From CAYFZR01 sp046760505 [NCBI: Candidatus Hydrothermarchaeota archaeon] (lineage in GTDB: Archaea > CAYFZR01): 64,000 nucleotides of DNA. The position numbers and the translations under genes were made by a program. The stretch covers positions 1-64,000 of the forward strand of contig JBHIEG010000005.1 of assembly GCA_046760505.1 (NCBI GenBank). The letters are read 5' to 3'. This document shows positions 10,582 to 30,885 of the stretch, piece by piece; the stretch's first letter is position 1; each line of letters opens with the position of its first letter. The notes under the pieces were generated by a model, which saw only the letters and a program-made list of their open reading frames with translations, was not told the DNA's origin and made no database searches.

Positions 10582-10584
10582 TTT

Positions 10585-11139
10585 TCACCCTCTTTTATAA
10601 CCTAGTTCTTCTAAGTCCTTGTAAATTATATCCCTTGATACCGTAAAAATTTCCGCCACCTTTGAAATGTTTAGTGCCTTCGGGTCTCCCCCTAACAATG
10701 AGATGGCGTTCCTTAGTATTTCTCTCCTACTACCCTTATCAACTGGTATTTCGGTCTGGGAGTTCTCGTTGATCGCCACAATTATTGTTGAGTAGACCCT
10801 TCCGGGAATTGGGGTTGTGGTTGTCTTTACAAAAAAATCTGCTATGCTACCGTTCAAGTCCTTTAAGATGTTATTTATTTTCCTCTCAGCATTTTTTAGG
10901 GCTTGTTCCTCACTTATTCCTCTTTCGTTCACGAATACAACTTTCTTTTTAGCATAGTTGTCTCCGCTAACCGAGAGGGCTATTTCTATGACTGCTCCTC
11001 CGACCCCTGCTTCAATGCTTACCCTCATCTTTTCGATATTTCCACCTATTCCTGTTAGTTTCTTGTTTATCTCCTCTCCTGCTTTTTCTAATGCAGTTTT
11101 AACATCACTTCCGCTCTTGCATACCCCTACGATCCTCAT
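10585..11139 (-). CDS. Unknown pilus-operon protein with possible C-terminal HTH
   Basis: 184 residues, no membrane segment and no signal peptide, so probably cytoplasmic. Residues 1-125 look like an alpha/beta domain ('VSIEAGVGGAVIEIALSVSG', 'RVYSTIIVAINENSQTEIP'). The last 50 residues, 'GDPKALNISKVAEIFTVSRD' followed by 'IIYKDLEELGYKRG', resemble a helix-turn-helix. The start ATG overlaps the stop of the upstream platform gene (TAATG) and the stop is 3 nt before tadC, so it is an integral operon member. It could be a regulator of pilus expression or an assembly factor bound to the platform proteins. I do not recognise the family. Confidence 0.7.
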   Translation of the reverse strand: MRIVGVCKSGSDVKTALEKAGEEINKKLTGIGGNIEKMRVSIEAGVGGAVIEIALSVSGDNYAKKKVVFVNERGISEEQALKNAERKINNILKDLNGSIADFFVKTTTTPIPGRVYSTIIVAINENSQTEIPVDKGSRREILRNAISLLGGDPKALNISKVAEIFTVSRDIIYKDLEELGYKRG

Positions 11140-14174: not shown

Positions 14175-14387
14175 AGGAGCACCATAAATCAGAAGTTATC
14201 TTGTAATACTTTTATGGTTACATTGCCTTAACTTTTTTGGTAATTTGCTCATTTCGTAAGTAAGGATACGCTTGGTTGAATGGATATAGTAGTTTCATAA
14301 ACTAATAATTCTTTTTGTTACAATTTTGAAAAACTCTTAGGCATAATTGTCTGGTCAAAAATATAATTAGTTTAGGTCATGGCTAAA

Positions 14388-15449
14388 TCAAGGAATCTTG
14401 AATCTAAAATCCCTCTTTTGCATCTTTAGGACGACCAAAGGCAGATTATCTTCTACTTCCAAAGATATCTTATCTAATACAGAATTCAAATCTTCCTTCG
14501 ATTTTAGGTAAAGAACTGCCAGAATGTTCCATTCTGATGCATTTTCGGTTAGAAATTTTGTCTCTTCGAGATCTTTCAGGTACGAAATGACTTTTTCTTT
14601 GTTTTGGGGAGTTACCTTTACCAGCAAGGCTACTGGAAAAAGTCTTCCCACCTTAGCCGGATCTATGGACATCGTATATCTCTCTATTATCTTGTCTTCT
14701 TCCAATCTCTTTACCCTATACCTGATGGTTGCCTCGCTAACTCCTATTTCATTTGCTATCTCTCTGAATGACTTTCTTGAATTCTGCTGTAATCTTTCTA
14801 AAATCTTAGAATCTAATTTATCCAAGGGTACACCAGGCTTAACCATTATTGGAGTGAGTATGGCTCTGTAACTTCTCAATATTTCTTCCTTATAATCTGC
14901 TATCTTCTCTGGATTTAGTAAGTACTCATAAGTCTCCATTGTCTCTACGTTATTTTTTCTGAAGGTGGAATTACAGTAAATGCAGTTAATCTCCTCGTTT
15001 GGAACCTGGAAAAAGTTTTTACATTTATTGCAGAAGTAAACATCGGTTACCCTTGTATAGTCGACTCCCAGCGACTTTAAAGGCAAGTCACATTTTGGAC
15101 ATCTTAATCTTGAAAATTCATCTTCCAGATCTATGTGTCCGCATTCAAAGTGCTCAATGTAAGATGCCTTTCTGATGTTTGATGAATTACAAAGTGAGCA
15201 TGTGGATTTTAGTTTAAAAACGAATTTATGACAGTTTGGACATGAGTATATCTTATCATAGGTTTTTTTTATCAGGAATCCGTTTGAATGTAATCCCTCA
15301 AGTATTTTAATGGTTTCTTCTCCTCTAGTTCCCAGTACATCATCTGCTTCGGGATAAGAAATTCCTTCGAGATCTATGTATGGAGATAGCGAATTCTTGC
15401 TTTCTGTTATCATCATTCCCAGTAAATCAATCTCTTTCTTACCGAGCAT
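14388..15449 (-). CDS. Triple zinc-ribbon/Lrp-AsnC fusion transcription regulator
   Basis: 353 residues in three parts. Residues 1-65 look like a small winged-helix-like region. Residues 66-160 hold three zinc-ribbon-like modules: C70-x2-C73 with C84-x2-C87; C103/H105 with C117-x2-C120; C140-x2-C143 with C156-x2-C159. Residues 210-262 form an AsnC/Lrp HTH (LDSKILERLQQNSRKSFREI and IANEIGVSEATIRYRVKRLE), followed by a RAM-like ligand-binding domain to the end. The zinc-ribbon part resembles the thaumarchaeal output domain (TackOD1) as I remember it, not confirmed. AGGGAGA precedes ATG 15449, 4 nt after the stop of the KaiC-like gene, so the two form an operon. Ligand and targets unknown. Confidence 0.8.
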   Translation of the reverse strand: MLGKKEIDLLGMMITESKNSLSPYIDLEGISYPEADDVLGTRGEETIKILEGLHSNGFLIKKTYDKIYSCPNCHKFVFKLKSTCSLCNSSNIRKASYIEHFECGHIDLEDEFSRLRCPKCDLPLKSLGVDYTRVTDVYFCNKCKNFFQVPNEEINCIYCNSTFRKNNVETMETYEYLLNPEKIADYKEEILRSYRAILTPIMVKPGVPLDKLDSKILERLQQNSRKSFREIANEIGVSEATIRYRVKRLEEDKIIERYTMSIDPAKVGRLFPVALLVKVTPQNKEKVISYLKDLEETKFLTENASEWNILAVLYLKSKEDLNSVLDKISLEVEDNLPLVVLKMQKRDFRFKIP

Positions 15450-15453
15450 GGAA

Positions 15454-16191
15454 TTATTTCTCCCTAATGAGTCTTAAACCATTTGAGTCTATTGTAAAAG
15501 GTATTAGCTCAGGTGAATGATTTGTGCCTCGCATCTTCAGTATCTCTAATGCGCGCACCCTTCTGTTACCTTTTCTCAAGTAGTATAGCACGATAACTCC
15601 ATCCGCAATGAAAGTCTCTATGCCGAAACGGCCCGTAGGGCTCCTTGGAGATGATTCAGCGATCATGAGAGTGGTCATGTTCTTGCTTTCCATGGATTTT
15701 GCCAAAACTGATATTTCCTGTCTCACCCTGAAGGTATTTGATTCATAGAATTCGAGAGATGATATTGGATCAAATACAATGCGTGTCGCATTTATTTGCT
15801 GAATGTTCTCATGAACTAGGCTTGCAAGATTTTCAACAGAAAAATCGCGGTACCCGGATGTGGATACTCTCTCTAAAATGTATTTCTCCTTTGAGAGTCT
15901 CGTTGGTATGGCTCTCACAATTCTCAACAAATCTGATTCTATCAACGCATCTAGATCCCATCCAAATCTCATCATATTTGCCTTGATTTTTTCAGGTTCT
16001 TCTTCGAGTACGACCAGCACTCCTGGCTCATCGTATTGGAGGGCGCCTTTCACTAGGAACTGGGTGGCCATTATGCTTTTACCTGTTCCTGCGGCGCCCA
16101 CTATTAGGATTGTTCTCTTTTTTGGAAATCCCCCCTCGATCAATGGATCCAGTCCATCGATACCAGAGGATATCCTTTCCACCCCTCTCAT
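15454..16191 (-). CDS. KaiC-like RecA-superfamily ATPase, single domain
   Basis: 245 residues, one KaiC-type domain. Walker A GAAGTGKS (32-39), the following 'IMATQFLVKGALQYDEPGVL', an acidic 'VVLEEEPEKI' and Walker B 'RIVFDPISSLE' are all present. Proteins of this type in archaea are signal-transducing ATPases, often paired with regulators. GAGGTGA lies 4 nt upstream of ATG 16191. It is co-transcribed with the zinc-ribbon/Lrp regulator 4 nt downstream, so it may sense a cellular state and control that regulator. No second KaiC domain and no membrane segment. Confidence 0.87.
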   Translation of the reverse strand: MRGVERISSGIDGLDPLIEGGFPKKRTILIVGAAGTGKSIMATQFLVKGALQYDEPGVLVVLEEEPEKIKANMMRFGWDLDALIESDLLRIVRAIPTRLSKEKYILERVSTSGYRDFSVENLASLVHENIQQINATRIVFDPISSLEFYESNTFRVRQEISVLAKSMESKNMTTLMIAESSPRSPTGRFGIETFIADGVIVLYYLRKGNRRVRALEILKMRGTNHSPELIPFTIDSNGLRLIREK

Positions 16192-19328: not shown

Positions 19329-19415
19329 TGAGAAATAATGCGAAACCGTTTACCCAAGAGATATATAATATAATTTAAATAGTTCGGATTGATGAACTAA
19401 TGTGAAGTGAGAGAC

Positions 19416-19886
19416 ATGACGGAAAAATCCAACGAAGAACTTAAAAAATGTGAGGCGAAACTGAATGCCCTCACCATTCTTGTAGGAGGGCTTTCAAGGT
19501 CAATGGAGGCTGTAATGGGAAAGGGAGGAAGAGCAGTAGCATATAAAATGGGGAGAGATGGCGGGAAGAGAATAGCGAAGAAGCTAGGCAAGGCTGAGAG
19601 CATAAAAGAGGCTATAACCAAACTTACAAGCGAAATTGGAGATCTCTATGATATTGAGATAAAGGAAAACGGAGATGAAATTGAATTAACTACAAATTAC
19701 TGTTACATAAGGGAGGTAATAAAAAAGAGACAGGCGGTGGGACTTAAACCTGCTGGTACTTTATGCAGGGTAACTAGGGGCTATCTGGAGAGCGTAATAG
19801 AAGAGATGACGGGAAAAAAAGTTCAACTTAAACTGATAGAATCTGACTTGGAAAAGGACTTTTGCAAGGTGACGCTAAAGGGGTAG
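19416..19886 (+). CDS. Single V4R-like (4-vinyl reductase fold) protein
   Basis: 156 residues from ATG 19416; GTG 19407 is an in-frame alternative. Residues 30-75 ('AVAYKMGRDGGKRIAKKLG') and the C-terminal 'CRVTRGYLESVIEEMTGKKV' followed by a Cys near the end follow the V4R layout, a small ligand-binding fold related to haem-NO-binding and TRAPP proteins. Relative to the tandem V4R protein at 24724-25695 the Cys-x25-Cys spacing is kept, but the second Cys is Ser and the last sits one residue closer. It may bind hydrocarbons, tetrapyrroles or a metal. Convergent with the radical SAM gene, overlapping it by 12 nt. Family by eye only. Confidence 0.6.
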   Translation: MTEKSNEELKKCEAKLNALTILVGGLSRSMEAVMGKGGRAVAYKMGRDGGKRIAKKLGKAESIKEAITKLTSEIGDLYDIEIKENGDEIELTTNYCYIREVIKKRQAVGLKPAGTLCRVTRGYLESVIEEMTGKKVQLKLIESDLEKDFCKVTLKG

Positions 19887-20912
19887 AGGTATCCTTTCAA
19901 TTTCTAACCTATCGTGGGTTGGATACTCCTTAACTATCGCTGCATCACAATCTAGAAGATCAGAGAGACGCTCAGCAATGTACCATGAAGTCTCAATCCT
20001 TTCCTTAGATTCGTCTACATGAAACATATCTTCTGGAATGGAGAATTCGAAAATTAATCTTTTTTTAAGTGTTTTTAGGTCTTTACTTGATTTTGGATAG
20101 ATTATACCTTTGACAAGCAGACCTTCTTCGGTAATCTCCTCGTACTTTTTTCTAACGTTCTTTGCTCTTCTTAAAAATCTGTTTTTCAACTGGACTGAAT
20201 CCTTTATAAAAGAAGGGCAGAAATGTATGTTAAATCCTTCTAAATTCTTGAAGATTTCCATTGCTTTTTCAAAACTTCCCTTTATGGCATTCGATGAATC
20301 ATTTACTAACCCATATTTTTTCAGATAGGGTGCATTCGTTTCAGAGAGTTCCAGTTCGTTTATGTTTATGAAAGAGTAATTCGATTCAGGGAGATATTCG
20401 ATTAAACCACTGTAATCTTTATCTGGAATTGCGGGGATCTCTATCCCTGTATGGAGATATTCTGTAACCCACTCAAGGCTCTTTAACCCTTGCAGTTCAG
20501 CGTTAATCCTGAGTTCATCCAATCCTGCATCGGCGAGCAATTCTGCTTGCCTTTGATTCAGGAGATCACCACATGTATAAAGATGGATGTGATGTTTGCC
20601 AAAATTTTCTTTGAGAAGGTTTATCACTTCCAAAGTTCTGTTAAACACGAGTAAAGGCTCGCCTCCCGTTATTCCGGTTCCCCTGGCATCTATTAACCTC
20701 GCCTCCTCTAATATATCTTCATAAGATCTCACCTTTCTTTCATTCGCCCATATTGCGTCAACCTTTCTCTCATTTGAAACAGGACAGAAATAACAGTTTT
20801 TTTTGCATAGCCCCGTTATGAAAAGTACTAATTTCGCACCCTTTAAGCATAGTCTGCATCCTTTAGACATTTTGCCTTTCAGGAATGAGCCGTATTTGGT
20901 CTTCATATTCAT
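19875..20912 (-). CDS. Radical SAM protein (COG2108-like), function unknown
   Basis: 345 residues from ATG 20912 (TTG 20930 possible). The radical SAM cluster is C-x3-C-x2-C in 'LCKKNCYFCPVSNERK', preceded by an extra pair 'GCRLCLKGAKL' that could bind a second metal. 'GTGITGGEPLLVFNRTLEVI' is the SAM-binding GGEP motif. The layout matches an archaeal family related to pyruvate-formate-lyase activating enzymes (COG2108 in memory). It lies 23-40 nt after a DUF2226-like gene and near Pelota on the same strand, so the three may be one transcript. Substrate unknown. No ribosome-binding site is visible. Confidence 0.8.
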   Translation of the reverse strand: MNMKTKYGSFLKGKMSKGCRLCLKGAKLVLFITGLCKKNCYFCPVSNERKVDAIWANERKVRSYEDILEEARLIDARGTGITGGEPLLVFNRTLEVINLLKENFGKHHIHLYTCGDLLNQRQAELLADAGLDELRINAELQGLKSLEWVTEYLHTGIEIPAIPDKDYSGLIEYLPESNYSFININELELSETNAPYLKKYGLVNDSSNAIKGSFEKAMEIFKNLEGFNIHFCPSFIKDSVQLKNRFLRRAKNVRKKYEEITEEGLLVKGIIYPKSSKDLKTLKKRLIFEFSIPEDMFHVDESKERIETSWYIAERLSDLLDCDAAIVKEYPTHDRLEIERIPLPL

Positions 20913-20953
20913 CAACGGAAAAGTTATCAAGGTGATTGTGAAATGCAGGTTAA

Positions 20954-21736
20954 TTACTCTTCATCTTCATTAAATCTCTTTAATATTCGGTCTATTATCT
21001 TTTCCTCAGGATCTTTGAGTCGGTGCGTTTTCAAAAGCAAGTCCCTTGAAAGGTAGACCCTATGAACGATATTAAATCCCTCTTCCGTTATGTACATTTC
21101 ACTATGGTCCTTCAAAAATTCAACCAACTTATCTACTTCCACAGAAAATATCTCGATCGAGCATGGACCCAAATTGTACAAAAAATATTGGAGAGCCTTA
21201 TCGGATGTGAACTCTTCCTTTCCAACCGCAAAGCATGCCATTGGAGCGCCCTCTTTGGCGACTATGTAAAAGTCAAAATCTTCCATGGAGAACTTGGCAT
21301 ACCCAGACAATAATTCAGAGCCTATTTCAGCAAAAATATTCCTTAAATCTGGTGTTTCAACCTTAATTTTCTTTATTAACTTTCCACGAGGCAGTTCAGT
21401 CACTATCCTGAACCCAGTGAAAAGATACTTTGAATTCAGCTCTTTTATGTATCTCAGTTGGTATGGAGAAAATTCAAAAATTGCAAATGAAGGATTTTCA
21501 ATTGACTTTATGCATTCGAGAGCATCTTTTCCTTTTTTTGTATTTTCTTTGCCTTTTTTACAACTAGCCCCGATTAAAACTCCCTTTTCAAATATGAGAT
21601 AAGATTCTGCGTTGGGGGCTGAGATCTTTATGTATCCGTTTAATTTATCTTCTTCTTTTTCTCTAATTAAAGTATCAATTTCAACCTCATTCGGAGAAAA
21701 TGATGCGATTAAAGTACCCTCTTTTGGTATCAACAT
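20954..21736 (-). CDS. DUF2226-like protein
   Basis: 260 residues from ATG 21736, giving MLIPKEGTLIASF; a GTG at 21754 is less likely because the paralogue at 26021-26533 begins the same way (MLLPKGVRLEET). The protein has no Cys-rich site or membrane segment, apart from GASCKKGK. It contains 'LNGYIKISAPNAESYLIFEK' and then 'GVLIGASCKKGKEN', and later 'LLSGYAKFSMEDFDFYIVAK': strand-rich half-repeats of the same type, each ending in a hydrophobic 'viaxG' patch. So it may be two copies of one domain. I place it in DUF2226/PATAN-like from memory. In bacteria such domains work with small GTPases and Roadblock proteins. Confidence 0.6.
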   Translation of the reverse strand: MLIPKEGTLIASFSPNEVEIDTLIREKEEDKLNGYIKISAPNAESYLIFEKGVLIGASCKKGKENTKKGKDALECIKSIENPSFAIFEFSPYQLRYIKELNSKYLFTGFRIVTELPRGKLIKKIKVETPDLRNIFAEIGSELLSGYAKFSMEDFDFYIVAKEGAPMACFAVGKEEFTSDKALQYFLYNLGPCSIEIFSVEVDKLVEFLKDHSEMYITEEGFNIVHRVYLSRDLLLKTHRLKDPEEKIIDRILKRFNEDEE

Positions 21737-21786
21737 ATTTTTAATCCCATCCACTTTCGTTATTTGAGATCTTTATATTAAAATGT

Positions 21787-22908
21787 TTAGGCCTGAATTT
21801 TGTACCTTAACAGAGCAGCGATACCTCCTAGCGATAATAAATTCTCGCCAGCCTCGTGTTCGGAGCTAATTATCATTATGTGAGAGGAAGTCTTTCTTGC
21901 ATTTTCCATTATTTCTTCTATTCTATCATCTTTTCTCGATCTGAACTCCCTCAGAGTTCTATCGGATACGATTAGTTTGTCTACGGCCCCATAGTTCACC
22001 GCCCTTTCTACTTCCTGCAAGCCGTATACTCCGAGACCTGTGCCCTTTCCTATTTCTTCGAGAAGACTTTCCACCACCTTGAATTCCTTGGATATACGAT
22101 CATCCTTTATTACTCTATCTATCGCCCCCCTCTTTATTATTTCATGGACTCCCGGTTTCCCTGTGTTACTTGCTGGCTCGAGTTTAGAAATTTCGCTCAA
22201 TTCCTTGTAGTTTTCAGATAAAAAGTTCAAGAAATCTTCCTTCATAAATCCCGGGCCACAGATTATTATTGCTTGTATCATCTCATTTTTTATCATTTCC
22301 CTTGTCATTTCACTTTCAGTTGATTTATTCTCTATTATTTTATTTTCCATCATTTTATTTGCTATTTCCCTGAAAAATCCTTTCTTTGTGGTTGAAAATG
22401 ACTTTTCGTCCATCTTCTTGCTAAGCCCTGAGTATATCTTACCAAGCGACTCTATACCATACTGGCGGAAAATAAAAATCTCTGCCTCACTCTCATCTAT
22501 GGTCACAACCATTATTAAAGGTCTTTTTGCCTCTATTTCCGCCTCTTTAAGCCTTTCTAATTGATCATTTTTCCAAGATTTTTCTATCGTAATAATGGTT
22601 CTCTCGGTTACATCCAGAGTATGGTGCTTTCCAAGGTCTGTGCCATGTTCTATTACTCCTAGAATTCTTAAACGGTTTGAATGGGGATGAAAATCAACAT
22701 TCTTTACCCTTATTCCGAGGTATACCAGTTTTTTTTCTGGTCTTTCTGTCCTTATCTTATTTTTAATAACTTCCTGATCCCTTCGATAAGACTTAGAAAA
22801 AACAAGGTCTCCACTTTCGATGATGTTCTGTAGGTGCCAGAGGTCATTTAAACTATCTATCCTGAGTTTGATCCTGCCCTTCTTTAGGTCTCGATGTATG
22901 ATTTTCAT
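21787..22908 (-). CDS. pelA: mRNA surveillance protein Pelota
   Basis: 373 residues, typical archaeal length. The N-terminal domain starts MKIIHRDLKKGRIKLRIDSL and 'NDLWHLQNIIESGDLVFSKS', followed by the central domain ('LIMVVTIDESEAEIFIFRQY') and C-terminal eRF1-like domain ending 'SSEHEAGENLLSLGGIAALL'. The GGQ of release factors is absent, as expected for Pelota. With aEF1A and ABCE1 (encoded here at 29113-30885) it rescues stalled ribosomes. First gene of a probable minus-strand operon with a DUF2226-like and a radical SAM gene. Confidence 0.95.
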   Translation of the reverse strand: MKIIHRDLKKGRIKLRIDSLNDLWHLQNIIESGDLVFSKSYRRDQEVIKNKIRTERPEKKLVYLGIRVKNVDFHPHSNRLRILGVIEHGTDLGKHHTLDVTERTIITIEKSWKNDQLERLKEAEIEAKRPLIMVVTIDESEAEIFIFRQYGIESLGKIYSGLSKKMDEKSFSTTKKGFFREIANKMMENKIIENKSTESEMTREMIKNEMIQAIIICGPGFMKEDFLNFLSENYKELSEISKLEPASNTGKPGVHEIIKRGAIDRVIKDDRISKEFKVVESLLEEIGKGTGLGVYGLQEVERAVNYGAVDKLIVSDRTLREFRSRKDDRIEEIMENARKTSSHIMIISSEHEAGENLLSLGGIAALLRYKIQA

Positions 22909-22965
22909 ACGAGCACCATCGAAATCTATATTTAGTCTTATAATAATCTTCCCAGAGGGTCATAA

Positions 22966-23265
22966 GTGAATGAGTGCACCAAAGATATTAGAAAAGATGC
23001 TGAAGATTTGATTGAAAAGTTCAAAAAATCCAAAGGGGAAATGCCCTTTAACCTTTATGCAACCGTTAACATAGAGATAATCTGGAAAGAAGGGGACATT
23101 CACAATTGTATCTTAACCATCGACGCATGTGATCCTGATGAATTAAAGGCTATAACTGAAAACTTAACTTCCTCTATCACTGGAGAAATCAAATTTTGTG
23201 AGGTTTTCATCGAGTACTATGACGAAAAAGAAGATAACTATATGGAATTCAGACTTCAAGACTGA
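22966..23265 (+). CDS. Small protein of unknown function
   Basis: 99 residues from GTG 22966, with GAGGG 6-7 nt upstream. It starts with a charged helix (MNECTKDIRKDAEDLIEKFK) and continues with strand-rich sequence ('YATVNIEIIWKEGDIHNCIL', 'EIKFCEVFIEYYDEKEDNYM'). Soluble and acidic, two Cys in the beta part. Divergent from Pelota (57 bp between starts) and 100 nt upstream of trpB2. I do not recognise it; the alternating beta/alpha layout might suggest an ACT- or Pcc1-like fold, which I could not establish. Confidence 0.6.
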   Translation: MNECTKDIRKDAEDLIEKFKKSKGEMPFNLYATVNIEIIWKEGDIHNCILTIDACDPDELKAITENLTSSITGEIKFCEVFIEYYDEKEDNYMEFRLQD

Positions 23266-23288
23266 ACTCGCGTTATCTCAATATCAAC

Positions 23289-23331
23289 GTACAAATGTGT
23301 ACTCAAAATACTTAAATATTGCACTGTACTA
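23289..23331 (+). promoter_or_regulatory. trpB2 promoter with a near-palindromic GTACA site (TRP-box-like)
   Basis: GTACAAATGTGTAC (23289-23302) matches its reverse complement at 12 of 14 positions, leaving GTACA and TGTAC half-sites. It sits just upstream of a TATA-like CTTAAATATT (23311-23320), with a further TGTACT (23325-23330) near the expected start. The methanogen regulator TrpY is known to bind TGTACA boxes at trp promoters; whether a TrpY-like factor exists here is unknown. A GGAGGGAAG site precedes ATG 23365. Confidence 0.45.
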
Positions 23332-23364
23332 CATAAATGGACATCATAATCGGAGGGAAGAGAA

Positions 23365-24693
23365 ATGTCGGTTGTAACTTTATCAATAGATGAAATGCCG
23401 AGAAAGTGGTACAACATCCTTCCAGATCTGCCAAGACCTCTAGATCCTCCAAAAGATCCTGATGAAGGCCCATCAAGAATGGCGAACTTGCCAAAAATCT
23501 TCCCGAAAGCCCTGTTGCAACAAGAAATGAGCATGGATCCATATATTGATATACCAGAGGAGATAGTAGAGATTTACTACAAAATAGGAAGACCCACCCC
23601 TCTTTATAGAGCAACGAGGCTCGAAAAATTTCTGAATACGCCCGCCAAGATATATCTCAAGAGAGAGGATCTTTCTCCTACAGGCAGTCATAAGTCAAAC
23701 ACTGCTGTAGCACAGGCATACTATGGAATGAAGGAAGGCGCAGAAAGATTGACCACAGAAACAGGTGCTGGACAGTGGGGATCTGCACTTTCCCTCGGAT
23801 GCGCTCTGTTTGACCTTGAGTGTCTAGTTTATATGGTGAGAGTGAGTTACGAGCAGAAACCATATCGAAGAATTGTAATGCAGTTGTACGGTGCAGAAGT
23901 TGTCCCATCCCCGAGCGAGAGAACAGAGGCAGGCAGAAAGATATTGGCAGAAAATCCTGATCATCCAGGATCTTTGGGTATTGCCATCTCAGAAGCGGTG
24001 GAAACAGCCATAAATCACGATGAAACATTCTATTCTCTGGGAAGTGTATTGAATCACGTGCTACTTCACCAAACAGTGATCGGACAGGAGTTGATAAAAC
24101 AGTTTGAACTCCTCGATGAAACTCCTGATTTCATGGCAGGCTGTGTGGGAGGAGGAAGCAATTTCTCAGGATTTATGTTTCCTTTCATAGGCAAAAAGCT
24201 CAGGGGAGAATACGATGAAACAACGTTTATGGCGGTTGAGCCTAAAGCGGTGCCAACTCTAACTGGTGAGAAGATCTCGGTGTCTCAATACAGATACGAC
24301 CACGGAGATACTGCAACGCTCACTCCCTTGTTGAAGATGTATACACTAGGTCATGATTTTGTACCTCCACCAATCCACAGCGGCGGACTGAGATACCATG
24401 GAGATGCTCCGATCCTATGTTTGCTAGTAAAAGAGGGATTAGTTAAGGCCAAGGCATATCATCAGAGCGAGATATTCAGAGCGGGTCAGATACTGGCAAA
24501 AACAGAGGGATTAGTAACAGCGCCAGAGACCTGTCATGCGCTTGCAGCTGTGATAGACGAGGCAAGAGAAGCGAAAAAGACAGGAGAGAAAAAAATCCTA
24601 GTGTACAATCATTCTGGACATGGATTGTTAGATCTCGCGGGATACGATGATTTTCTTTCTGGAAGGCTAAAAGACTACGAACCAACTAAGTAA
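23365..24693 (+). CDS. trpB2: Tryptophan synthase beta chain, TrpB2 type
   Basis: 442 residues; the N-terminus with '[20 protein letters not shown]' is specific to the TrpB2 branch. PLP Lys is in '[17 protein letters not shown]', PLP-phosphate-binding glycines in '[16 protein letters not shown]', and '[15 protein letters not shown]' is the catalytic Glu/Gln region. It condenses indole and serine to tryptophan; TrpB2 enzymes are also thought to salvage indole without TrpA. No trpA or other trp gene is in the window. Convergent with the V4R gene 30 bp downstream, which has a T-rich gap. Confidence 0.95.
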
Positions 24694-24723
24694 GGGCTTT
24701 TGTACTATTTTTTATTCCCTTTC

Positions 24724-25695
24724 TCAATCCATTTCTATACCATAGACACAAGAATGATTACCTTTTTTTGTGCAGGCAATTTCTTTGACCTTAACATCTT
24801 CTCCCGTAGCTGTAGATAGTGCGGAGGCAAAAAAACTGGCATTCCAAACACAATATCTTGAGTCGACTTCTGTCTTGGGTATAGTGGAACAGAGCCAGCA
24901 GTCCTCAACCACAAAAGTATTGCCATCCACGCTTACTTTGCCCAACCCGAGTTCATTGGAGACATCTGCTAACATTGAAATAGATTCTTTGGGGTCTTTT
25001 TCCAGTGATCTCCCCACGTTCTGACCTACTATTATGGCTCCAGTTCTGAGCACGGATCCCGCCCTGCCTACGCCAAGCTGCCTAACAACTGAAGCACCGA
25101 TCATGTGTCCTAGGTGAATTGGACTTCTTACATCCTTAACCTTGTTGAACGTGGAGAAGTAAGTCTTTATGAGTTTATCAGCATCATTCATTGTGTACTC
25201 AATGGGCTTTATTAGAAGATCCTTTATACTTCTTGATGGGGAGAAAACAAACCTACATTCATCCTCTCCTTTTGCTATACACTTTTCTTCCACAACGCTG
25301 TAGTTCTTGCCAGTAGCCCCCTTCAAGATATATTGAAGTAAAATTCTTGTGGTACTGCACATGGGTTTTTCCATAGAATTCTCAAAACTTAAACATTCAT
25401 GACAGTTTCCAGTGGTTGCGAAGCCTAATTGGTCAAACTCCAAATCGAAGACTTTGAGCGCCTCATTAAAGGTCGTTTCTGAACTTAGAATACCCTTCCC
25501 AATATGCTCGCTTACCTGTCTCAAAATTGGGTGACATCCTCCACCCATATTCTTTATTACACCAACGTAAACCCCTGTATTCACCGCAAGGCTCATAGAA
25601 TCTCCGATCTTTCTAGTCTCTTTCTGGTCACAGAGTTCAGATAGCTTTTCCGCTATCTCCTCCATAGCATCTACAGATATCCTTTGCCAGTCCAT
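24724..25695 (-). CDS. Tandem V4R-domain protein with conserved Cys spacing
   Basis: 323 residues, two V4R domains. Domain 1 (about 60-155): C98-x2-C101-x11-C113-x25-C139-x7-C147. Domain 2 (about 200-323) repeats it: C-x2-C-x12-C-x25-C-x7-C ('EDCWLCSTIPK', 'RYCVWNAS', 'ACTKKGNHSCVYG'). The near-identical spacing in both copies implies a shared metal or cofactor site. 'GCHPILRQVSEHIGKG' adds Cys54. V4R folds bind small hydrophobic or tetrapyrrole ligands. It is the last gene of an operon with a Roadblock protein (9 nt upstream) and a DUF2226-like protein, suggesting a sensor module. Start ATG 25695. Confidence 0.82.
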   Translation of the reverse strand: MDWQRISVDAMEEIAEKLSELCDQKETRKIGDSMSLAVNTGVYVGVIKNMGGGCHPILRQVSEHIGKGILSSETTFNEALKVFDLEFDQLGFATTGNCHECLSFENSMEKPMCSTTRILLQYILKGATGKNYSVVEEKCIAKGEDECRFVFSPSRSIKDLLIKPIEYTMNDADKLIKTYFSTFNKVKDVRSPIHLGHMIGASVVRQLGVGRAGSVLRTGAIIVGQNVGRSLEKDPKESISMLADVSNELGLGKVSVDGNTFVVEDCWLCSTIPKTEVDSRYCVWNASFFASALSTATGEDVKVKEIACTKKGNHSCVYGIEMD

Positions 25696-25704
25696 TAGAG
25701 GGCC

Positions 25705-26061
25705 TCACAGCAGTGCGCTGAGTTCGGGAACAATCTTATTCATCTGCATTCTTATGTAGCCCAAGTTGGCCGAGGTATCAGCAAGAACTCCCAGCACAGC
25801 TGAATCATCAACCGAAATTAAGAAAACATTTCCATTCTCACCCTCCGCGATAACAAACTTCACGGCACCCTGCTTTAACTCTTCAAAAGAAACTGAAAGG
25901 GCACCATAAGAGGCTGAGAGTGTTGCGCCTGCATCATCTTTACTTATGTTCTTTGGGAGGACTTCTGCTATTATAAATCCATCCATACTCACCAAGAAAG
26001 ATCCTTTTACGCCTGAGATATCATTCAGCTTCGATATTATTCTCTCTATCTCGGCTACCAA
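25705..26061 (-). CDS. Roadblock/LC7-domain (MglB-like) protein
   Basis: 118 residues from TTG 26061, 8 nt after GGAGG (26074-26070). The sequence 'VKGSFLVSMDGFIIAEVLPK' and 'GATLSASYGALSVSFEELKQ' followed by strand-rich 'KFVIAEGENGNVFLISVDDS' matches Roadblock proteins such as MglB, which act as GTPase-activating partners of small GTPases. No small Ras-like GTPase gene is adjacent. Overlaps the preceding DUF2226-like gene by 41 nt. The likely partners are the DUF2226-like and V4R proteins of the same operon. Confidence 0.85.
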   Translation of the reverse strand: MVAEIERIISKLNDISGVKGSFLVSMDGFIIAEVLPKNISKDDAGATLSASYGALSVSFEELKQGAVKFVIAEGENGNVFLISVDDSAVLGVLADTSANLGYIRMQMNKIVPELSALL

Positions 26062-26533
26062 CCCATACACCTCCACTCAGTATTCTATCTATTTCCTCCT
26101 CCGTAGGTTCCTTTATCTTGTACTTCTTAAGAAGAGCTTCTCGGAGAGCCTCTCTTTCACTTTCGATCGGACATAGATCCACTCCAGACTCGCTTATCAA
26201 ATGGTCCTTGTAGTACTCGTTGATCAGGCCTATTTCCGAGTCAGAATACTCGAACAATTCAATCCTTATATTGTTCCATCTTCGACTCGAAAGTTTCTTT
26301 ATAAAATCAATGCCTTTTCCCTCTTCACCTTCTCTCAAAAATTTTCCAACCGCAAGAATTGCCTTACCATCTTTAAGAACTACCTGACATCTTACCGACT
26401 GATCTGGACTTCTTAGGTAAGCATCGACAAGTCCGGTAAATTTCTTGCAAGAAATCTCTTGTAAATACAAAAGCAAGTTACTATCCTTCGCTTGGTAAGT
26501 TTCTTCTAGCCTAACACCTTTTGGGAGTAACAT
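26021..26533 (-). CDS. DUF2226-like protein, short paralogue
   Basis: 170 residues from ATG 26533. Starts MLLPKGVRLEETYQAKDSNL and contains 'FTGLVDAYLRSPDQSVRCQV' followed by 'VLKDGKAILAVGKFLREGEE', matching in layout the first half of the protein at 20954-21736 (GYIKISAP...LIFEKGVLIGASCKK...GKDALECIKSI). The C-terminus, 'REALLKKYKIKEPTEEEIDR', is helical and could be a HTH-like tail or interaction segment. First gene of the DUF2226-like/Roadblock/V4R operon; the 26534-26680 stretch upstream is AT-rich with likely promoter sequence only. Confidence 0.65.
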   Translation of the reverse strand: MLLPKGVRLEETYQAKDSNLLLYLQEISCKKFTGLVDAYLRSPDQSVRCQVVLKDGKAILAVGKFLREGEEGKGIDFIKKLSSRRWNNIRIELFEYSDSEIGLINEYYKDHLISESGVDLCPIESEREALREALLKKYKIKEPTEEEIDRILSGGVWVGSRDRENNIEAE

Positions 26534-26680
26534 GAAAACCCTTCCTCAACCATTCAGCCTTAATTAAAATAAATTATAAGGCTCCGTATATAAAAATTCT
26601 TCCGTAACGAAATTTATTAAATAATTTCAAATTTAGAAGTTAAGTCGTGGACGATCAACAAAAATTTTAATTAAAAAAGA

Positions 26681-26911
26681 TTAAAATAAGTGAAATATTG
26701 GATAATACCTACTATTTCTTAAAAAAACTAAGTTTTTTTCTTCTAATTTGTCCAAGGCCTTTTTAATGGAATCTTCTTTTAATTCTGTTTCGTTTTTAAT
26801 TTCTGATTGGCTGATTCCTCTAGATCTGTTGCTCAGAATACAGTTGTAAACAACTCTCTCGGTTACCGTCAAACTTCCTGAGAGGGGGATTCTTATTCTC
26901 TCATCCATCAT
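26681..26911 (-). CDS. Small winged-helix protein
   Basis: About 76 residues from ATG 26911 (ATG 26908 and GTG 26917 possible). 'LTVTERVVYNCILSNRSRGI' and 'SQSEIKNETELKEDSIKKAL' followed by 'DKLEEKNLVFLRNSRYYPIF' form a compact winged helix (MarR-like or RPC34-like), with no room for a second domain. Starts within the last bases of the NFACT gene on the same strand, so translation may be coupled. It probably binds DNA; no target can be suggested. Confidence 0.7.
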   Translation of the reverse strand: MMDERIRIPLSGSLTVTERVVYNCILSNRSRGISQSEIKNETELKEDSIKKALDKLEEKNLVFLRNSRYYPIFHLF

Positions 26912-28838
26912 GATCACATATACTTGAGTTTCCAGGTATTGCCTGCATTATCTCATCTAGATCTCCATTTATCCTGTTTTTAATAATCTTTGCGATTTCG
27001 TTCTTTGGAGTGTCACCGGGCTCTATGACAACAAAGTTTTTTGTTTTGCTGGCAACGGATGATAAAGGACCGTATATTATCTTATCGTTAACTCTTCCAA
27101 TGGCAATTTTAAGGTCCACAGATAGATAATTTCTTTTTCCGTATATCATGAATCCTCCTTTTGGGATGTATTCTCCGGATGGCGCCTCCTTTGAAACCTG
27201 ATCAGGGTATACCCAGTAAACTTCTGTCCCATGAAAACCCATCTTCCAGGCATTTGAATAACAAGCAGCGAATATTGCTGCCTCTTTCATTGATTGCTCT
27301 GATGGCTCTTTTCCTTTTGTCTTAAGTATCACGTGGGGGGCTCCGCTTATATTAGCATGAAAATAACGGTCTGAAGGTTCCATATGTCTTTTTACGACTT
27401 TTTCATTGCTTTTGGCATCTTTTCCCCCTATTACAAGAAATCCCTCCGAAGTGAAAAACCACCTGTATTGCTCATACCACTTTTTCTTTCTTACTTTTTT
27501 CTCTTTGGGCATTTTAATCTCTACAGGGACTTCTTCTTTTTTTGCATACTCTATGAGCTTTTTTGTTTCTTCTATTGCTTTTTTGGCGCCCTCTATCTTT
27601 TCTTTGGCTTTTTTAGCCTTTTTATAGTGTACTTCGGCATTTTCAGGTAGAGTTTTTTTCAAGTCTATTTCCACTTCATCTTCTAAATCCAAGTAAATTT
27701 TCCCTGTTTTGAGATCTATTCTCTTTAAAATCTGTAGTTCCTTGTTTTTTTCTTTGCTTGATTCAATAGCAGCTAGTATATCTTCCCATGAATATCCTTT
27801 ATCCCTCGCCTCTTTAAGCATATTCAATATGTTCTCTATGATGTGATAATTAGCGTATATTAAATCTCCCAATTTTTTCTCTTTGATAGCAACTTTTTCC
27901 AAATTTTTCAATGTCTCTTCTTGTTCATTTAGCCTTATATACAATTTAGCCAGTTTATTTTCCTTTAAATCATAAGTTTTTTTATCCAAGATTTCTATTT
28001 CAGTTTTTGTAAAGAAATCGTCCAGTGCTTGATTGAAAGATTCGTAATATACAAGTTTTTTCCCTTCATAGACTTCTAAGGGGAAAGGTAAAACATCTAT
28101 TAGGTTTCCATTTTCAATTACCATAACTGGTCTTGGATTTTCAAGTTTGCTTATCAAATTTCTGAATGATAGGTACAATTTTTCTATATCGTTGTCTTCT
28201 AGTTCTTCTCCAAGAATATTTTTCTCCAATCCAGCGATTTTACATACTTCTTCTGCATATATGCCACTCAAATTTAGTTTTCTCGCCAGCAATCTCACTG
28301 TTTCAATAGGCTCGTTTAACAATTCTTTTAGATCTTCCTTGCTTATGGAGAAAATATCAATACCTGAAGGTGGGTATTCATAGATTTCTCCACTTATAAC
28401 ATTTCTATGTCTCCATTTTTGCGGAAATAGAGGTCTTATAATTTTTTTAGAACTATCCAATAAAATAAGATTGCCCTTTCCAAATATTTCAAATACAAGC
28501 GTGTAGTTTTCTTTATGAGATAGATCAAACTCTAAAATCCTGTCGAAGTTGTGTTGCCTTATATCGGCGATTATTGAATTACCTACGTATTTCCTTAGGA
28601 ACATAGCAAAGTTTGAGGGCCTTTCAGGGTTTTCTCTGGGGTATTTTGTTATGTGGGCTCTTTTTCCAAGTGTAAAGACAAAATCTATAGTTCCTTGAGG
28701 TGATTTGTGCAATTTGAATGTGAATTCTTCAGGGAGCGGCTGATAGATTTTAACTATCCTACCGCCTTCTAGCCATTTTAATTCTCTTACCAATACACTT
28801 ATATCAACGTTAGTCATCTCTTTTTTCATATTCTTCAT
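26901..28838 (-). CDS. rqcH: NFACT-family protein (archaeal RqcH/fibronectin-binding-protein homologue)
   Basis: 645 residues from ATG 28838 (MKNMKKEMTNVDISVLVREL). NFACT-N domain from residue 9 ('MTNVDISVLVRELKWLEGGR'), a helix-hairpin-helix and coiled-coil middle part (about 300-450, 'KLYIRLNEQEETLKNLEKVA'), and the NFACT-R domain with 'RWFFTSEGFLVIGGKDAKSN', 'YFHANISGAPHVILKTKGK' and a C-terminal 'YLSVDLKIAIGR'. Eukaryotic Rqc2 and bacterial RqcH work on the large subunit of split ribosomes, adding C-terminal tails; Pelota and ABCE1 are encoded nearby. A start at ATG 28814 is possible. Its start is 11 bp from that of the divergent gene at 28850. Confidence 0.9.
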   Translation of the reverse strand: MKNMKKEMTNVDISVLVRELKWLEGGRIVKIYQPLPEEFTFKLHKSPQGTIDFVFTLGKRAHITKYPRENPERPSNFAMFLRKYVGNSIIADIRQHNFDRILEFDLSHKENYTLVFEIFGKGNLILLDSSKKIIRPLFPQKWRHRNVISGEIYEYPPSGIDIFSISKEDLKELLNEPIETVRLLARKLNLSGIYAEEVCKIAGLEKNILGEELEDNDIEKLYLSFRNLISKLENPRPVMVIENGNLIDVLPFPLEVYEGKKLVYYESFNQALDDFFTKTEIEILDKKTYDLKENKLAKLYIRLNEQEETLKNLEKVAIKEKKLGDLIYANYHIIENILNMLKEARDKGYSWEDILAAIESSKEKNKELQILKRIDLKTGKIYLDLEDEVEIDLKKTLPENAEVHYKKAKKAKEKIEGAKKAIEETKKLIEYAKKEEVPVEIKMPKEKKVRKKKWYEQYRWFFTSEGFLVIGGKDAKSNEKVVKRHMEPSDRYFHANISGAPHVILKTKGKEPSEQSMKEAAIFAACYSNAWKMGFHGTEVYWVYPDQVSKEAPSGEYIPKGGFMIYGKRNYLSVDLKIAIGRVNDKIIYGPLSSVASKTKNFVVIEPGDTPKNEIAKIIKNRINGDLDEIMQAIPGNSSICDHDG

Positions 28839-28849
28839 GGTGAACACAC

Positions 28850-29101
28850 ATGGATAACGAAAGTAAAGCTGCGATGGTCTATATGTTGTTTGGTGTGTTA
28901 TCTGGTATATTAAGTTGGGCACTCGTGCTGGGAGTACTCTTTGCTCCTGTGATATTGGTGCTTGTGGGTAGATTAAATGAGAAAATACTCAAGATAACGG
29001 TAGAAGACATCGGAGGCTCCAAGGGCTGGTTTGGAAACTGTTTCGTTCCTTTTGTTCTTTTATGGTTGTTTACGTGGATTCTGTTATTTAATCTCTTTTG
29101 A
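28850..29101 (+). CDS. Small membrane protein
   Basis: 83 residues with two hydrophobic helices ('VYMLFGVLSGILSWALVLGV' with 'LFAPVILVLVG', and 'FVPFVLLWLFTWILLFNLF') joined by a charged loop. GGTGA lies 6-7 nt upstream of ATG 28850, inside the divergent NFACT start region. A TATA-like sequence (about 28795-28805) lies inside the NFACT coding sequence. Next gene (ABCE1) follows 11 nt later on the same strand. Function unknown. Confidence 0.7.
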   Translation: MDNESKAAMVYMLFGVLSGILSWALVLGVLFAPVILVLVGRLNEKILKITVEDIGGSKGWFGNCFVPFVLLWLFTWILLFNLF

Positions 29102-29112
29102 GGTTCGTTTTT

Positions 29113-30885
29113 ATGAGAATCGCCGTTTTAGATAAAGATACCTGTCAACCAAAGAAATGCTCATACGAGTGCGTAAAGTACTGTCCTGGAGTGAGGATGA
29201 AAGAAGAAACGGTGATAATCGACGAAAAAACAGGAAAGCCTATAATATCAGAGGAACTTTGCTCGGGCTGTGGAATATGCATTAAAAGATGTCCTTTTGA
29301 GTCTATAACTGTTATAAATCTTCCAGAAGAACTTGAAGAGGAAAGCATCCACAGATACGGGTTAAATCAATTTAAGCTGTATGGTCTTCCATATCCACTT
29401 GAATCTGGCGTAGTCGGCTTGATAGGTCCTAATGGCATTGGAAAAACAACCGCCATAAATATTCTATCTGGGGAGATAAAGCCGAATCTCGGTAGATTCG
29501 AGGACCCTCCTGACTGGGACGAAGTAATCCTTTCTTTCAGAGGATCAGAAATCCAAAAATACCTTGAAAATCTCTCAAAAGGCAAAATAAAAGCAATACA
29601 CAAACCACAGTATATAGAAGGACTCTCAAGGGCAGTATCTGGATGTGTGAAGGATCTTTTAAAAAATATTGACGAGAGAGATCAATTGAAAAACTTAATC
29701 GAAATGCTAGATCTGGAAAGTTTTCTGAATAAGGACATCAAAGAATTAAGTGGAGGAGAATTACAGAGAGTAGCGATATCTGCTTGTTTATTAAAAGAAG
29801 GGGATGTATATCTCATTGATGAGCCTTCAAGTTATTTAGACGTGAGACAAAGGGTGAACGTGGCGAGAGCAATACAAGAACTTGCTAAGGAAAAGATGGT
29901 CGTTGTTGTGGAGCACGATCTTGTAATTTTAGACTGGATATGCGACTACGTGCAAATTCTCTATGGAAAGCCAGGCGTCTATGGTATTATTACCCACCCC
30001 AAGAGCGTCAGGGTAGGGATAAACGAATACCTAGAGGGATATTTAAGAGAAGAGAACGTGAGATTCAGAAAGGAAAGAGTTACTTTTGAGATTAGACCAC
30101 CTTCTCGTCCAACAGAAGGAGAAGAGTTGCTCACTTATCCAAAATTAACAAAAAAATATGATGGTTTCTCTCTTAAATGTAATGCTGGTTCCTTGATCAA
30201 AAGAGAAATAGTGGGTGTATTGGGTCCTAATGCAATTGGAAAAACAACGTTCGTAAAGATGCTTGCAGGGGTTTTAAAGCCCTCTACAGGCACTTTAGAT
30301 TTAAACATTAAGGTATCATACAAGCCCCAGTACCTCTCGCCAGAGTATGAAGAAACCGTATTAGAATTATTATCTAAGGTAACGAAAGAGTTTGGAACGA
30401 GTAGATATGAGAATGAAATACTCAAACCTCTGCAACTTGAAAAACTGTTAAACCAGCGAATAAACGAGCTCAGCGGAGGAGAACTACAAAGGGTTGCAAT
30501 TGCCCTGTGCCTCTCAAGGGAAGCGGATATTTACCTTCTGGATGAACCAAGCGCATATCTTGATGTGGAGCAGAGAATTTCGCTGACAAAAATGTTGAGG
30601 AGACTGATGGAACAAAGAGAAAAAACTGCTTTGGTCGTAGATCACGACGTGTTGCTGATAGATTATCTCTCGGATAGGATAATGATTTTTGATGGATATC
30701 CTGGAATTCAGGGTGAATCTATCGGACCGTTAGAAAAAAGAGACGGCATGAATCATTTTTTGAGAAAAATGAACATTACATTTAGAAGAGACAAAGAAAC
30801 CGGGAGACCTAGAATAAACAAAGAGGGCTCAAAACTTGACAGAGAACAGAAGATGGCGGGAGAGTACTACTACGTTATTTCATGA
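29113..30885 (+). CDS. abcE1: Ribosome recycling ATPase ABCE1/Rli1
   Basis: 590 residues from ATG 29113 (GAGGT upstream); TTG 29098 would add five residues. Eight Cys in two clusters form the N-terminal 4Fe-4S domain (C11, C16, C20, C24, then 'CSGCGICIKRCPF'). Two ABC domains follow with Walker A GPNGIGKTT and GPNAIGKTT, signatures 'LSGGELQRVAI' twice, and 'LIDEPSSYLDVRQR' and 'LLDEPSAYLDVEQR'. It splits ribosomes after termination or Pelota-dependent rescue. All catalytic motifs are complete. Confidence 0.97.
   Translation: MRIAVLDKDTCQPKKCSYECVKYCPGVRMKEETVIIDEKTGKPIISEELCSGCGICIKRCPFESITVINLPEELEEESIHRYGLNQFKLYGLPYPLESGVVGLIGPNGIGKTTAINILSGEIKPNLGRFEDPPDWDEVILSFRGSEIQKYLENLSKGKIKAIHKPQYIEGLSRAVSGCVKDLLKNIDERDQLKNLIEMLDLESFLNKDIKELSGGELQRVAISACLLKEGDVYLIDEPSSYLDVRQRVNVARAIQELAKEKMVVVVEHDLVILDWICDYVQILYGKPGVYGIITHPKSVRVGINEYLEGYLREENVRFRKERVTFEIRPPSRPTEGEELLTYPKLTKKYDGFSLKCNAGSLIKREIVGVLGPNAIGKTTFVKMLAGVLKPSTGTLDLNIKVSYKPQYLSPEYEETVLELLSKVTKEFGTSRYENEILKPLQLEKLLNQRINELSGGELQRVAIALCLSREADIYLLDEPSAYLDVEQRISLTKMLRRLMEQREKTALVVDHDVLLIDYLSDRIMIFDGYPGIQGESIGPLEKRDGMNHFLRKMNITFRRDKETGRPRINKEGSKLDREQKMAGEYYYVIS

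What the first reader, a model, noticed from the sequence alone, without database searches (positions are those of the whole stretch)
19416..26533. DUF2226-like/Roadblock/V4R signalling genes recur in this region
Two DUF2226-like paralogues, one Roadblock (MglB-like) protein, one tandem V4R and one single V4R protein lie within about 7 kb. At 24724-26533 three of them form a tight operon with 41-nt overlap and 9-nt spacing. Roadblock proteins usually act on small GTPases, but none is adjacent; DUF2226-like and V4R may form a new sensor pathway in archaea.
Basis: partly seen in the sequence, partly recalled or inferred. Interest (0 to 1): 0.65.

Follow-up and report, generated by a model that had tools for sequence, protein, structure and literature searches.

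The report
Archaeal Roadblock-DUF2226-V4R signalling genes
Three neighbouring archaeal genes probably encode parts of one signalling complex, a chemical sensor, a scaffold and an output adaptor, related to the switches that steer bacterial surface movement; in other archaea the same parts sit beside a small GTP-driven switch.

Summary
Window 24724-26533 (minus) is a tight DUF2226 > Roadblock > tandem-V4R operon (41-nt overlap if Roadblock starts at the TTG that has a Shine-Dalgarno; 9-nt gap). A second DUF2226 (20954-21754) and a remote single V4R (19407-19886) lie nearby. The contiguous trio was seen in no other locus examined, but every pair recurs. Roadblock-DUF2226 are neighbours or fused in 28 of 58 DUF2226 loci. 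V4R-Roadblock are neighbours in 6 of 80 ABCE1 loci and in 12 of 30 Halobacteriota GTPase loci, and fused in one Altiarchaeota genome. A small GTPase belongs to the wider system: a KaiC-like/Ras-Arf-type GTPase fusion adjoins Roadblock in 23 of those 30 loci, and a GTPase of that type precedes Roadblock-DUF2226 in five Altiarchaeota genomes. But Halobacteriota with DUF2226 mostly lack it (2 of 23 have its GTPase domain). DUF2226 resembles bacterial PATAN, below the formal cut-off, and in five Altiarchaeota loci directly precedes a pilus-type ATPase gene. Best reading: a V4R-sensing, Roadblock-scaffolded, PATAN-like adaptor module, an archaeal counterpart of bacterial MglA/MglB/PATAN systems. 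No function was tested.

The parts
26021..26533 (-). DUF2226 protein A (170 aa), first gene of the operon; PATAN-like N domain (inferred from relatives) plus the C-terminal motif REALLKKYKIKEPTEEEIDRIL
   Evidence: Pfam PF09987 46.3 bits; motif in 39 of 67 DUF2226 ORFs and 1 of 9400 other ORFs
25705..26061 (-). Roadblock/LC7 protein; probable start TTG 26061 (longest ORF starts at GTG 26076)
   Evidence: PF03259 46.2 bits; GGAGG at 26074-26070 eight bases before TTG; profile of it and 26 relatives matches solved Roadblock, MglB and LAMTOR chains
24724..25695 (-). tandem V4R protein (323 aa) with a Cys cluster in each half (by eye), last gene of the operon
   Evidence: PF02830 two stretches, 65.7 bits; model of mean pLDDT 60.2, second half mostly above 70, best matches PoxR and TRAPPC3/C6
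26587..26594 (-). TATA-like TTTATATA about 55 nt upstream of the operon's first ATG (read by eye)
   Evidence: sequence
20954..21754 (-). DUF2226 protein B (266 aa), apparently two DUF2226-like domains (by eye) and a degenerate form of the motif; in a same-strand run between pelota and a radical SAM gene
   Evidence: PF09987 35.0 bits; alignment A5; motif pattern not matched; gene order
19416..19886 (+). single V4R-superfamily protein, remote
   Evidence: profile-profile 96.6%, E 5e-10; relatives in L226 and L227
9670..16191 (-). context only: type IV pilus-type genes (T2SSF 9670-10581 and 11139-12509, T2SSE 12510-14174), TackOD1-HTH regulator 14388-15449, KaiC ATPase 15454-16191
   Evidence: Pfam

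Best explanation
The operon encodes one signalling complex. The tandem V4R protein is the sensor: a Zn/Cys-type small-molecule or redox pocket, as in PoxR. The Roadblock protein forms a homodimer that serves as platform. DUF2226, a PATAN-like adaptor, is the output arm that binds a downstream machine, most likely a type IV pilus-like motor ATPase or a signalling NTPase. In relatives a KaiC-like/small-GTPase fusion joins the same Roadblock platform; here such a GTPase could act in trans. Shown: domain identities, gene order, pairwise gene linkage and fusions in other archaea. Inferred: co-transcription, physical complex, homodimer, direction of signalling, ligand, target.
For: Roadblock-DUF2226 neighbours or fused in 28 of 58 loci, Roadblock upstream in 26; fusions in L227 and L331. 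V4R-Roadblock neighbours in 6 of 80 ABCE1 loci and 12 of 30 Halobacteriota GTPase loci; V4R-V4R-Roadblock fusion L279. GTPase next to Roadblock in 23 of those 30 loci, plus a KaiC-GTPase-Roadblock fusion, L248 (= L305). GTPase-Roadblock-DUF2226 in 5 of 16 Altiarchaeota DUF2226 loci (L198, L330, L333, L338, L342). DUF2226 directly before a T2SSE-like gene in 5 of those 16 (L199, L332, L334, L337, L341). Receptor context: an output-less HAMP receptor or its homologue beside 13 of 58 DUF2226 loci and an MCP in 3. 15 of 45 DUF2226 proteins match DUF4388 (PATAN) at E<=1, best 4.4e-5. The window Roadblock falls in the mainly DUF2226-partnered group of the Roadblock tree (SH-aLRT 96, long branch).
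Against: The contiguous trio was seen in no other locus examined. The window DUF2226 itself does not match DUF4388 even at E<=1, and the relatives checked one by one stay under Pfam's cut-off (best 23.5 against 25 bits). The DUF2226 model is poor (pLDDT 58.7) and no solved structure stands out. The conserved motif is absent from 14 of 14 Altiarchaeota DUF2226 ORFs of L329-L342, so the GTPase-linked form may differ. No V4R-Roadblock neighbours in 19 of 20 fetched V4R neighbourhoods; the other is the fusion L279. 30 of 58 DUF2226 loci have no Roadblock neighbour by the rule. No biochemical evidence.
Confidence: 0.55

Rival explanations
1. The complex is a dedicated regulator (GAP- or GEF-like) of a small GTPase, as MglB is for MglA, with the KaiC-GTPase encoded elsewhere in the genome.
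For: GTPase > Roadblock > DUF2226 in five Altiarchaeota genomes; GTPase > Roadblock > V4R in 12 Halobacteriota loci and in L344; GTPase motifs intact in six aligned domains (G1 GxxxxGK, G3 GTPG, G4 NKxD).
Against: No GTPase-profile match among the window ORFs. Halobacteriota with DUF2226 rarely have this GTPase: at E<=1e-30, 2 of 23 (one of them, G281, in a 177-aa frame, so not the fusion) against 51 of 271 without DUF2226 (p 0.39); with any match at E<=1e-8, 2 of 23 against 88 of 271 (p 0.017) (one search scored at most 12 candidates per genome). An Arf-family search matched 4 of 26 genomes with the Roadblock-DUF2226 pair and 6 of 20 comparators. The window Roadblock groups with the mainly DUF2226-only type.
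Confidence: 0.3
2. GTPase-independent receptor relay: Roadblock-DUF2226 takes a signal from HAMP/MCP receptors or V4R straight to a pilus or other motor, and GTPases were added in some lineages only.
For: A receptor that ends after its HAMP domain (L204) or a homologue beside 13 DUF2226 loci, MCP beside 3; DUF2226 before T2SSE-like genes in five Altiarchaeota loci; GTPase missing in most Halobacteriota with DUF2226. Bacterial PATAN response regulators are thought to act on type IV pili (PMC7690835, passages).
Against: No receptor gene next to the window operon; its pilus-type genes lie about 10 kb away.
Confidence: 0.3
3. Ordinary co-transcription: three unrelated small regulators share a promoter in this genome.
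For: The exact trio was seen once.
Against: Roadblock is linked to DUF2226 and to V4R elsewhere, including by fusions. DUF2226 and V4R are linked to each other only through Roadblock, apart from the longer runs of L226 and L227.
Confidence: 0.1

Closest known systems
Bacterial MglA/MglB polarity module with PATAN-domain partners
   Same: Roadblock protein encoded beside PATAN-type proteins and, in relatives, beside a Ras-type GTPase; PMC4316618 (passages) reports that some group 1 and 5 MglA genes occasionally, and MglB genes in an earlier study, lie near PATAN genes
   Different: Here the adaptor is archaeal DUF2226, a V4R sensor is added, and the relatives' GTPase is fused to a KaiC-like domain
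PATAN response regulators of cyanobacterial type IV pili
   Same: PATAN-like domain; DUF2226 adjoins a pilus-type ATPase gene in five Altiarchaeota loci; the review says PATAN regulators are thought or hypothesised to act on the pilus apparatus (PMC7690835, passages)
   Different: No receiver domain among the family matches shown for the DUF2226 proteins scanned (one search shows 25 of 65 families); binding to the ATPase is untested
Archaeal Roadblock (arCOG02603) and KaiC ATPases in type IV pilus loci
   Same: PMC4858521 (passages) notes both in archaeal pilus loci
   Different: The passages seen do not mention DUF2226, V4R or a KaiC-GTPase fusion
Asgard TRAPPC3/V4R, Roadblock and small GTPases; eukaryotic TRAPP
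   Same: V4R fold (PoxR, TRAPPC3/C6 and Thor TRAPPC3 among the best structural matches) together with Roadblock and a Ras-type GTPase
   Different: In the Asgard archaeon MK-D1 small GTPase genes generally do not share operons with Roadblock, longin or TRAPPC3 genes (PMC10933270, passages); no longin-type subunit was sought here

Membership tests
DUF2226 (PF09987) | score over Pfam's gathering cut-off | tested here: met
   46.3 and 35.0 bits against 22
Roadblock/LC7 (PF03259) | score over the cut-off | tested here: met
   46.2 bits against 23
V4R (PF02830), tandem protein | score over the cut-off, two copies | tested here: met
   65.7 bits against 31, two stretches; fold matches
V4R (PF02830), single protein 19407-19886 | score over the cut-off | tested here: inconclusive
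   no Pfam V4R match at E<=1; profile-profile 96.6%, E 5e-10
PATAN (DUF4388, PF14332) | score over the cut-off | tested here: not met
   window protein: no match at E<=1; best relatives seen one by one 23.4-23.5 bits against 25; 15 of 45 members match at E<=1, best 4.4e-5. So filed as PATAN-like, not PATAN
MglA/MglB GTPase module | cognate small GTPase gene beside Roadblock | tested here: not met
   no GTPase-profile match among the window ORFs; present in relatives
MglA/MglB GTPase module | GAP activity of the Roadblock homodimer | not testable with these tools
   biochemistry needed
TRAPP-like GEF | V4R fold subunit | tested here: met
   PoxR 5frw E 8.6e-4 (the only match at E<=0.001), TPC6 2bjn 1.7e-3, Thor TRAPPC3 7yh3 4.0e-3, from a model of mean pLDDT 60.2 with a better second half; H-NOX and soluble guanylate cyclase chains also match
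TRAPP-like GEF | longin subunits and exchange activity | not tested
   longin subunits not sought; exchange activity needs biochemistry

The most novel reading that the evidence does not exclude
V4R, Roadblock and a Ras/Arf-type GTPase form one ancient, ligand-gated switch in non-Asgard archaea, carrying in compact operons the fold set (V4R, Roadblock, GTPase) that eukaryotic TRAPP and Ragulator later elaborated; the window operon is a variant in which the PATAN-like DUF2226 is the output arm.
Probability: 0.13. Interest if true: 0.85.

Novelty: new variant of a known kind. Interest (0 to 1): 0.5.

Why it matters
The word DUF2226 is in no paper of the library searched (0 papers). Tying the family to Roadblock, V4R, a KaiC-GTPase fusion and pilus-type ATPases gives it a concrete role that can be tested, suggests that archaea have their own MglA/MglB/PATAN-type control of surface machines, and offers small operons in which V4R, Roadblock and GTPase occur together outside Asgard archaea.

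Tried and rejected
No whole genome is held for the window, so its own GTPases could not be searched. The ABCE1 tree leaves the window in an unresolved fork with Hadesarchaea, an Altiarchaeales/Hydrothermarchaeota group and a Thermococci/Bathyarchaeota/Asgard-type group; highest identity is 60%, to a Hydrothermarchaeota row. Neighbour 16084-18039 of L069 looked like RqcH by size, which would have meant conserved synteny with the window; it is an aldehyde ferredoxin oxidoreductase, so that idea was dropped. Tandem-V4R proteins of Altiarchaeota were expected to end in a Roadblock domain; only those of one genome (G016) do among the 17 ORFs checked, which include repeats of one gene. The DUF2226 motif was considered as a Roadblock-binding site; it also occurs in MCP-linked DUF2226 proteins without Roadblock and is missing in several Roadblock-linked ones, so its partner is open. 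DUF2226 fold search: nothing at E<=0.001; VIA-align best Z 7.2 to 2nmu, not above the usual noise. Sequence search for solved relatives of the tandem V4R protein gave none at E<=1, and of DUF2226 none better than E 0.055.

Choice of rows: the 60 neighbourhoods were picked by hand from the matches, mostly the stronger ones. 15 of them come from the Thermococcus phylum, where 69 of 115 genomes pass the cut-off; in Halobacteriota two of 23 matching genomes (G281, G320) were not fetched. 58 of the 60 held a DUF2226 ORF by my own profile. My Roadblock profile was seeded from the window protein, so distant Roadblock genes can be missed. GTPase-Roadblock counts use the best 30 loci only. The '53 of 294' GTPase count is my reading of the listing at E<=1e-30; two of the 53 (G281, G333) are in frames under 200 aa. 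The KaiC part was checked by family search in eight proteins: found in L198, L244, L245, L247, L248, L303 and L330, not found in L249; elsewhere it is inferred from length and similarity. The T2SSE-like gene of L334 is cut by the locus end and matched no Pfam model at E<=0.01; it was called by its 89-bit match to the window ATPase. The list headed 'L001-080 V4R loci' is a script artefact and was not used.
Full report
What is there. The minus-strand operon 26533-24724 encodes a 170-aa DUF2226 protein, a Roadblock/LC7 protein and a tandem V4R protein; all pass Pfam cut-offs. Spacing is 9 nt between Roadblock and V4R. DUF2226 and Roadblock overlap by 41 nt if Roadblock starts at TTG 26061, which has GGAGG eight bases before it. 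A TATA-like box lies about 55 nt before the first ATG. DUF2226 protein B (20954-21754) sits between pelota and a radical SAM gene on the same strand and appears to hold two DUF2226-like domains (by eye). The single V4R (19407-19886) is remote but supported by profile-profile comparison.

DUF2226. Only archaeal phyla were sampled; of 14 named control genomes, bacteria included, only Methanocaldococcus jannaschii matches. The family is over its cut-off in 22 of 294 Halobacteriota, 69 of 115 genomes of the Thermococcus phylum, 13 of 23 of the Hydrothermarchaeota phylum, 14 of 29 of the Altiarchaeota phylum, 2 of 243 of the Methanomassiliicoccus phylum and 2 of 250 of the Bathyarchaeota phylum (each phylum is that of a named locus, and the phylum names Halobacteriota and Altiarchaeota are recalled). 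15 of 45 aligned members match DUF4388 (the PATAN domain; that name equation is recalled) at E<=1, best 4.4e-5. In L204 and L218 the match lies in the N-terminal region and in L230 in the second half, all under the cut-off; the window protein itself gives no DUF4388 match. A C-terminal motif, of the form REALLKKYxIKxPSEEEI, is found in 39 of 67 DUF2226 ORFs, 1 of 9400 others and 2 of the same ORFs when shuffled, and in none of 14 DUF2226 ORFs of the Altiarchaeota loci L329-L342. The model of the domain is of low confidence and gives no convincing fold match.

Roadblock and DUF2226. In 58 DUF2226 loci, 28 have Roadblock as a same-strand neighbour or fused, 26 with Roadblock upstream. The window has the opposite order, seen otherwise only in L203 among those 58; L338 has a Roadblock on each side of DUF2226. 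Fusions exist in L227 (244 aa) and L331 (391 aa). In Halobacteriota 13 loci carry, beside DUF2226, the receptor of L204 or a homologue: in L204 two hydrophobic stretches and a HAMP domain close to the C-terminus, with no output domain matched. Most of them also carry a protein with a weak CDC48-N/UFD1 match (11 loci) and a 68-aa protein (12 loci). In Hydrothermarchaeota, DUF2226 proteins (one with HEAT repeats by Pfam, in L189) follow an MCP in L189, L190 and L197, without Roadblock.

Roadblock, GTPase and V4R. An Arf-family search led to proteins of about 400 aa in which a KaiC-like domain is joined to a Ras/Arf-type GTPase; of eight checked by family search, seven show both parts and L249 only the GTPase. 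In the one read by eye (L244) the KaiC Walker A lacks GK[ST]. Six aligned GTPase domains keep the G1, G3 and G4 motifs. Of the best 30 Halobacteriota loci, 23 have Roadblock next to it and 12 have V4R next to Roadblock (V4R confirmed by Pfam in L303 and L304); one of the 30 is a KaiC-GTPase-Roadblock fusion (L305 = L248); five of the 30 hold no Roadblock match at all. In Altiarchaeota, L198, L330, L333, L338 and L342 read GTPase > Roadblock > DUF2226 (KaiC part checked in L198 and L330), and L344 reads GTPase > Roadblock > V4R. L279, from the same genome as L198, is a V4R-V4R-Roadblock fusion. V4R-Roadblock neighbours occur in 6 of 80 ABCE1 loci (L038, L046, L069, L070, L075, L077; titled Methanomassiliicoccales, Thermoplasmata or Euryarchaeota); three more (L026, L028, L034) have both genes on one strand in overlapping ORFs.

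Against a simple GTPase story. In the same 294 Halobacteriota genomes, 23 have DUF2226 at E<=0.001 and 53 this GTPase at E<=1e-30. Only 2 have both: G071, and G281 in a 177-aa frame. So there is no positive association (p 0.39; at E<=1e-8, 2 of 23 against 88 of 271, p 0.017). Earlier, 4 of 26 genomes with the pair and 6 of 20 comparators had an Arf-family match. The window Roadblock groups with mainly DUF2226-partnered Roadblocks on a long, weakly placed branch. The GTPase is thus an occasional partner of the platform, not a fixed one.

Output. In 5 of 16 Altiarchaeota DUF2226 loci the next gene downstream resembles the window's type II/IV secretion ATPase (L199, L332, L334, L337, L341), against one such gene in 1128 reference genes. 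In bacteria, PATAN-domain regulators are thought to act on type IV pili (PMC7690835, passages), and PATAN genes lie near some MglA and MglB genes (PMC4316618, passages). Archaeal Roadblock and KaiC genes in pilus loci are noted in PMC4858521 (passages). The window has pilus-type genes and a KaiC ATPase at 9670-16191, about 10 kb from the operon, too far away to count as linkage.

Input. The second half of the tandem V4R model is mostly confident and matches PoxR, MopR, TRAPPC3/C6 and Thor TRAPPC3. PMC10933270 (passages) reports Zn-binding cysteines and internal cavities in such proteins and suggests ligand binding. The window protein has Cys clusters in both halves (by eye).

Conclusion. A V4R sensor, a Roadblock platform and a PATAN-like DUF2226 output arm most likely act together; which NTPase or motor they control here is open. 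Novelty limits: DUF2226 is in no paper of the library, and Roadblock with V4R and archaea gives three papers, seen only in passages. The main paper on archaeal KaiC proteins (mBio 2017) is not held, so I cannot say that the KaiC-GTPase fusion is unreported.

Noticed in passing
L226:8013-15342 and L227:6592-11618 (Halobacteriota phylum): A relative of the window's single V4R stands near the head of a same-strand run with [NiFe]-hydrogenase small and large subunits (VhuA-like but under that model's cut-off; both metal-binding CxxC motifs intact; the L226 large subunit ends at DPCLSCSTH), then Roadblock and DUF2226: a candidate H2- or redox-sensing input.
   Followed up: partly
L204-L207, L209-L212, L216, L217, L220, L223, L224: Receptor (L204 and homologues) that in L204 has two hydrophobic stretches and stops soon after its HAMP domain, beside DUF2226 (in 11 of the 13 loci with Roadblock too): a receptor without an output domain of its own.
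   Followed up: partly
L299-L328, L198, L330: KaiC-like domain fused to a Ras/Arf-type small GTPase, preceded by a DUF7504 protein in the two loci checked for it (L244, L248); one triple fusion with Roadblock (L248). A KaiC-V4R fusion also exists (L296:2936-4117).
   Followed up: partly
window 21787-30885: Ribosome-rescue genes pelota (21787-22908, 302.9 bits), RqcH (26901-28922, 697.8 bits) and ABCE1 (29098-30885, named by recognition; query) are interleaved with the DUF2226/Roadblock/V4R genes.
   Followed up: no
window 19875-20930: Radical SAM protein directly downstream of DUF2226 protein B and convergent with the single V4R gene, weakly like MoaA/HxsC.
   Followed up: no
window 22966-23265: 99-aa ORF without Pfam match at E<=1 or NCBIfam match at E<=0.1, between pelota and a TrpB-like gene.
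   Followed up: no
window 14388-16191: KaiC ATPase with a TackOD1-HTH regulator directly beside type IV pilus-type genes.
   Followed up: no
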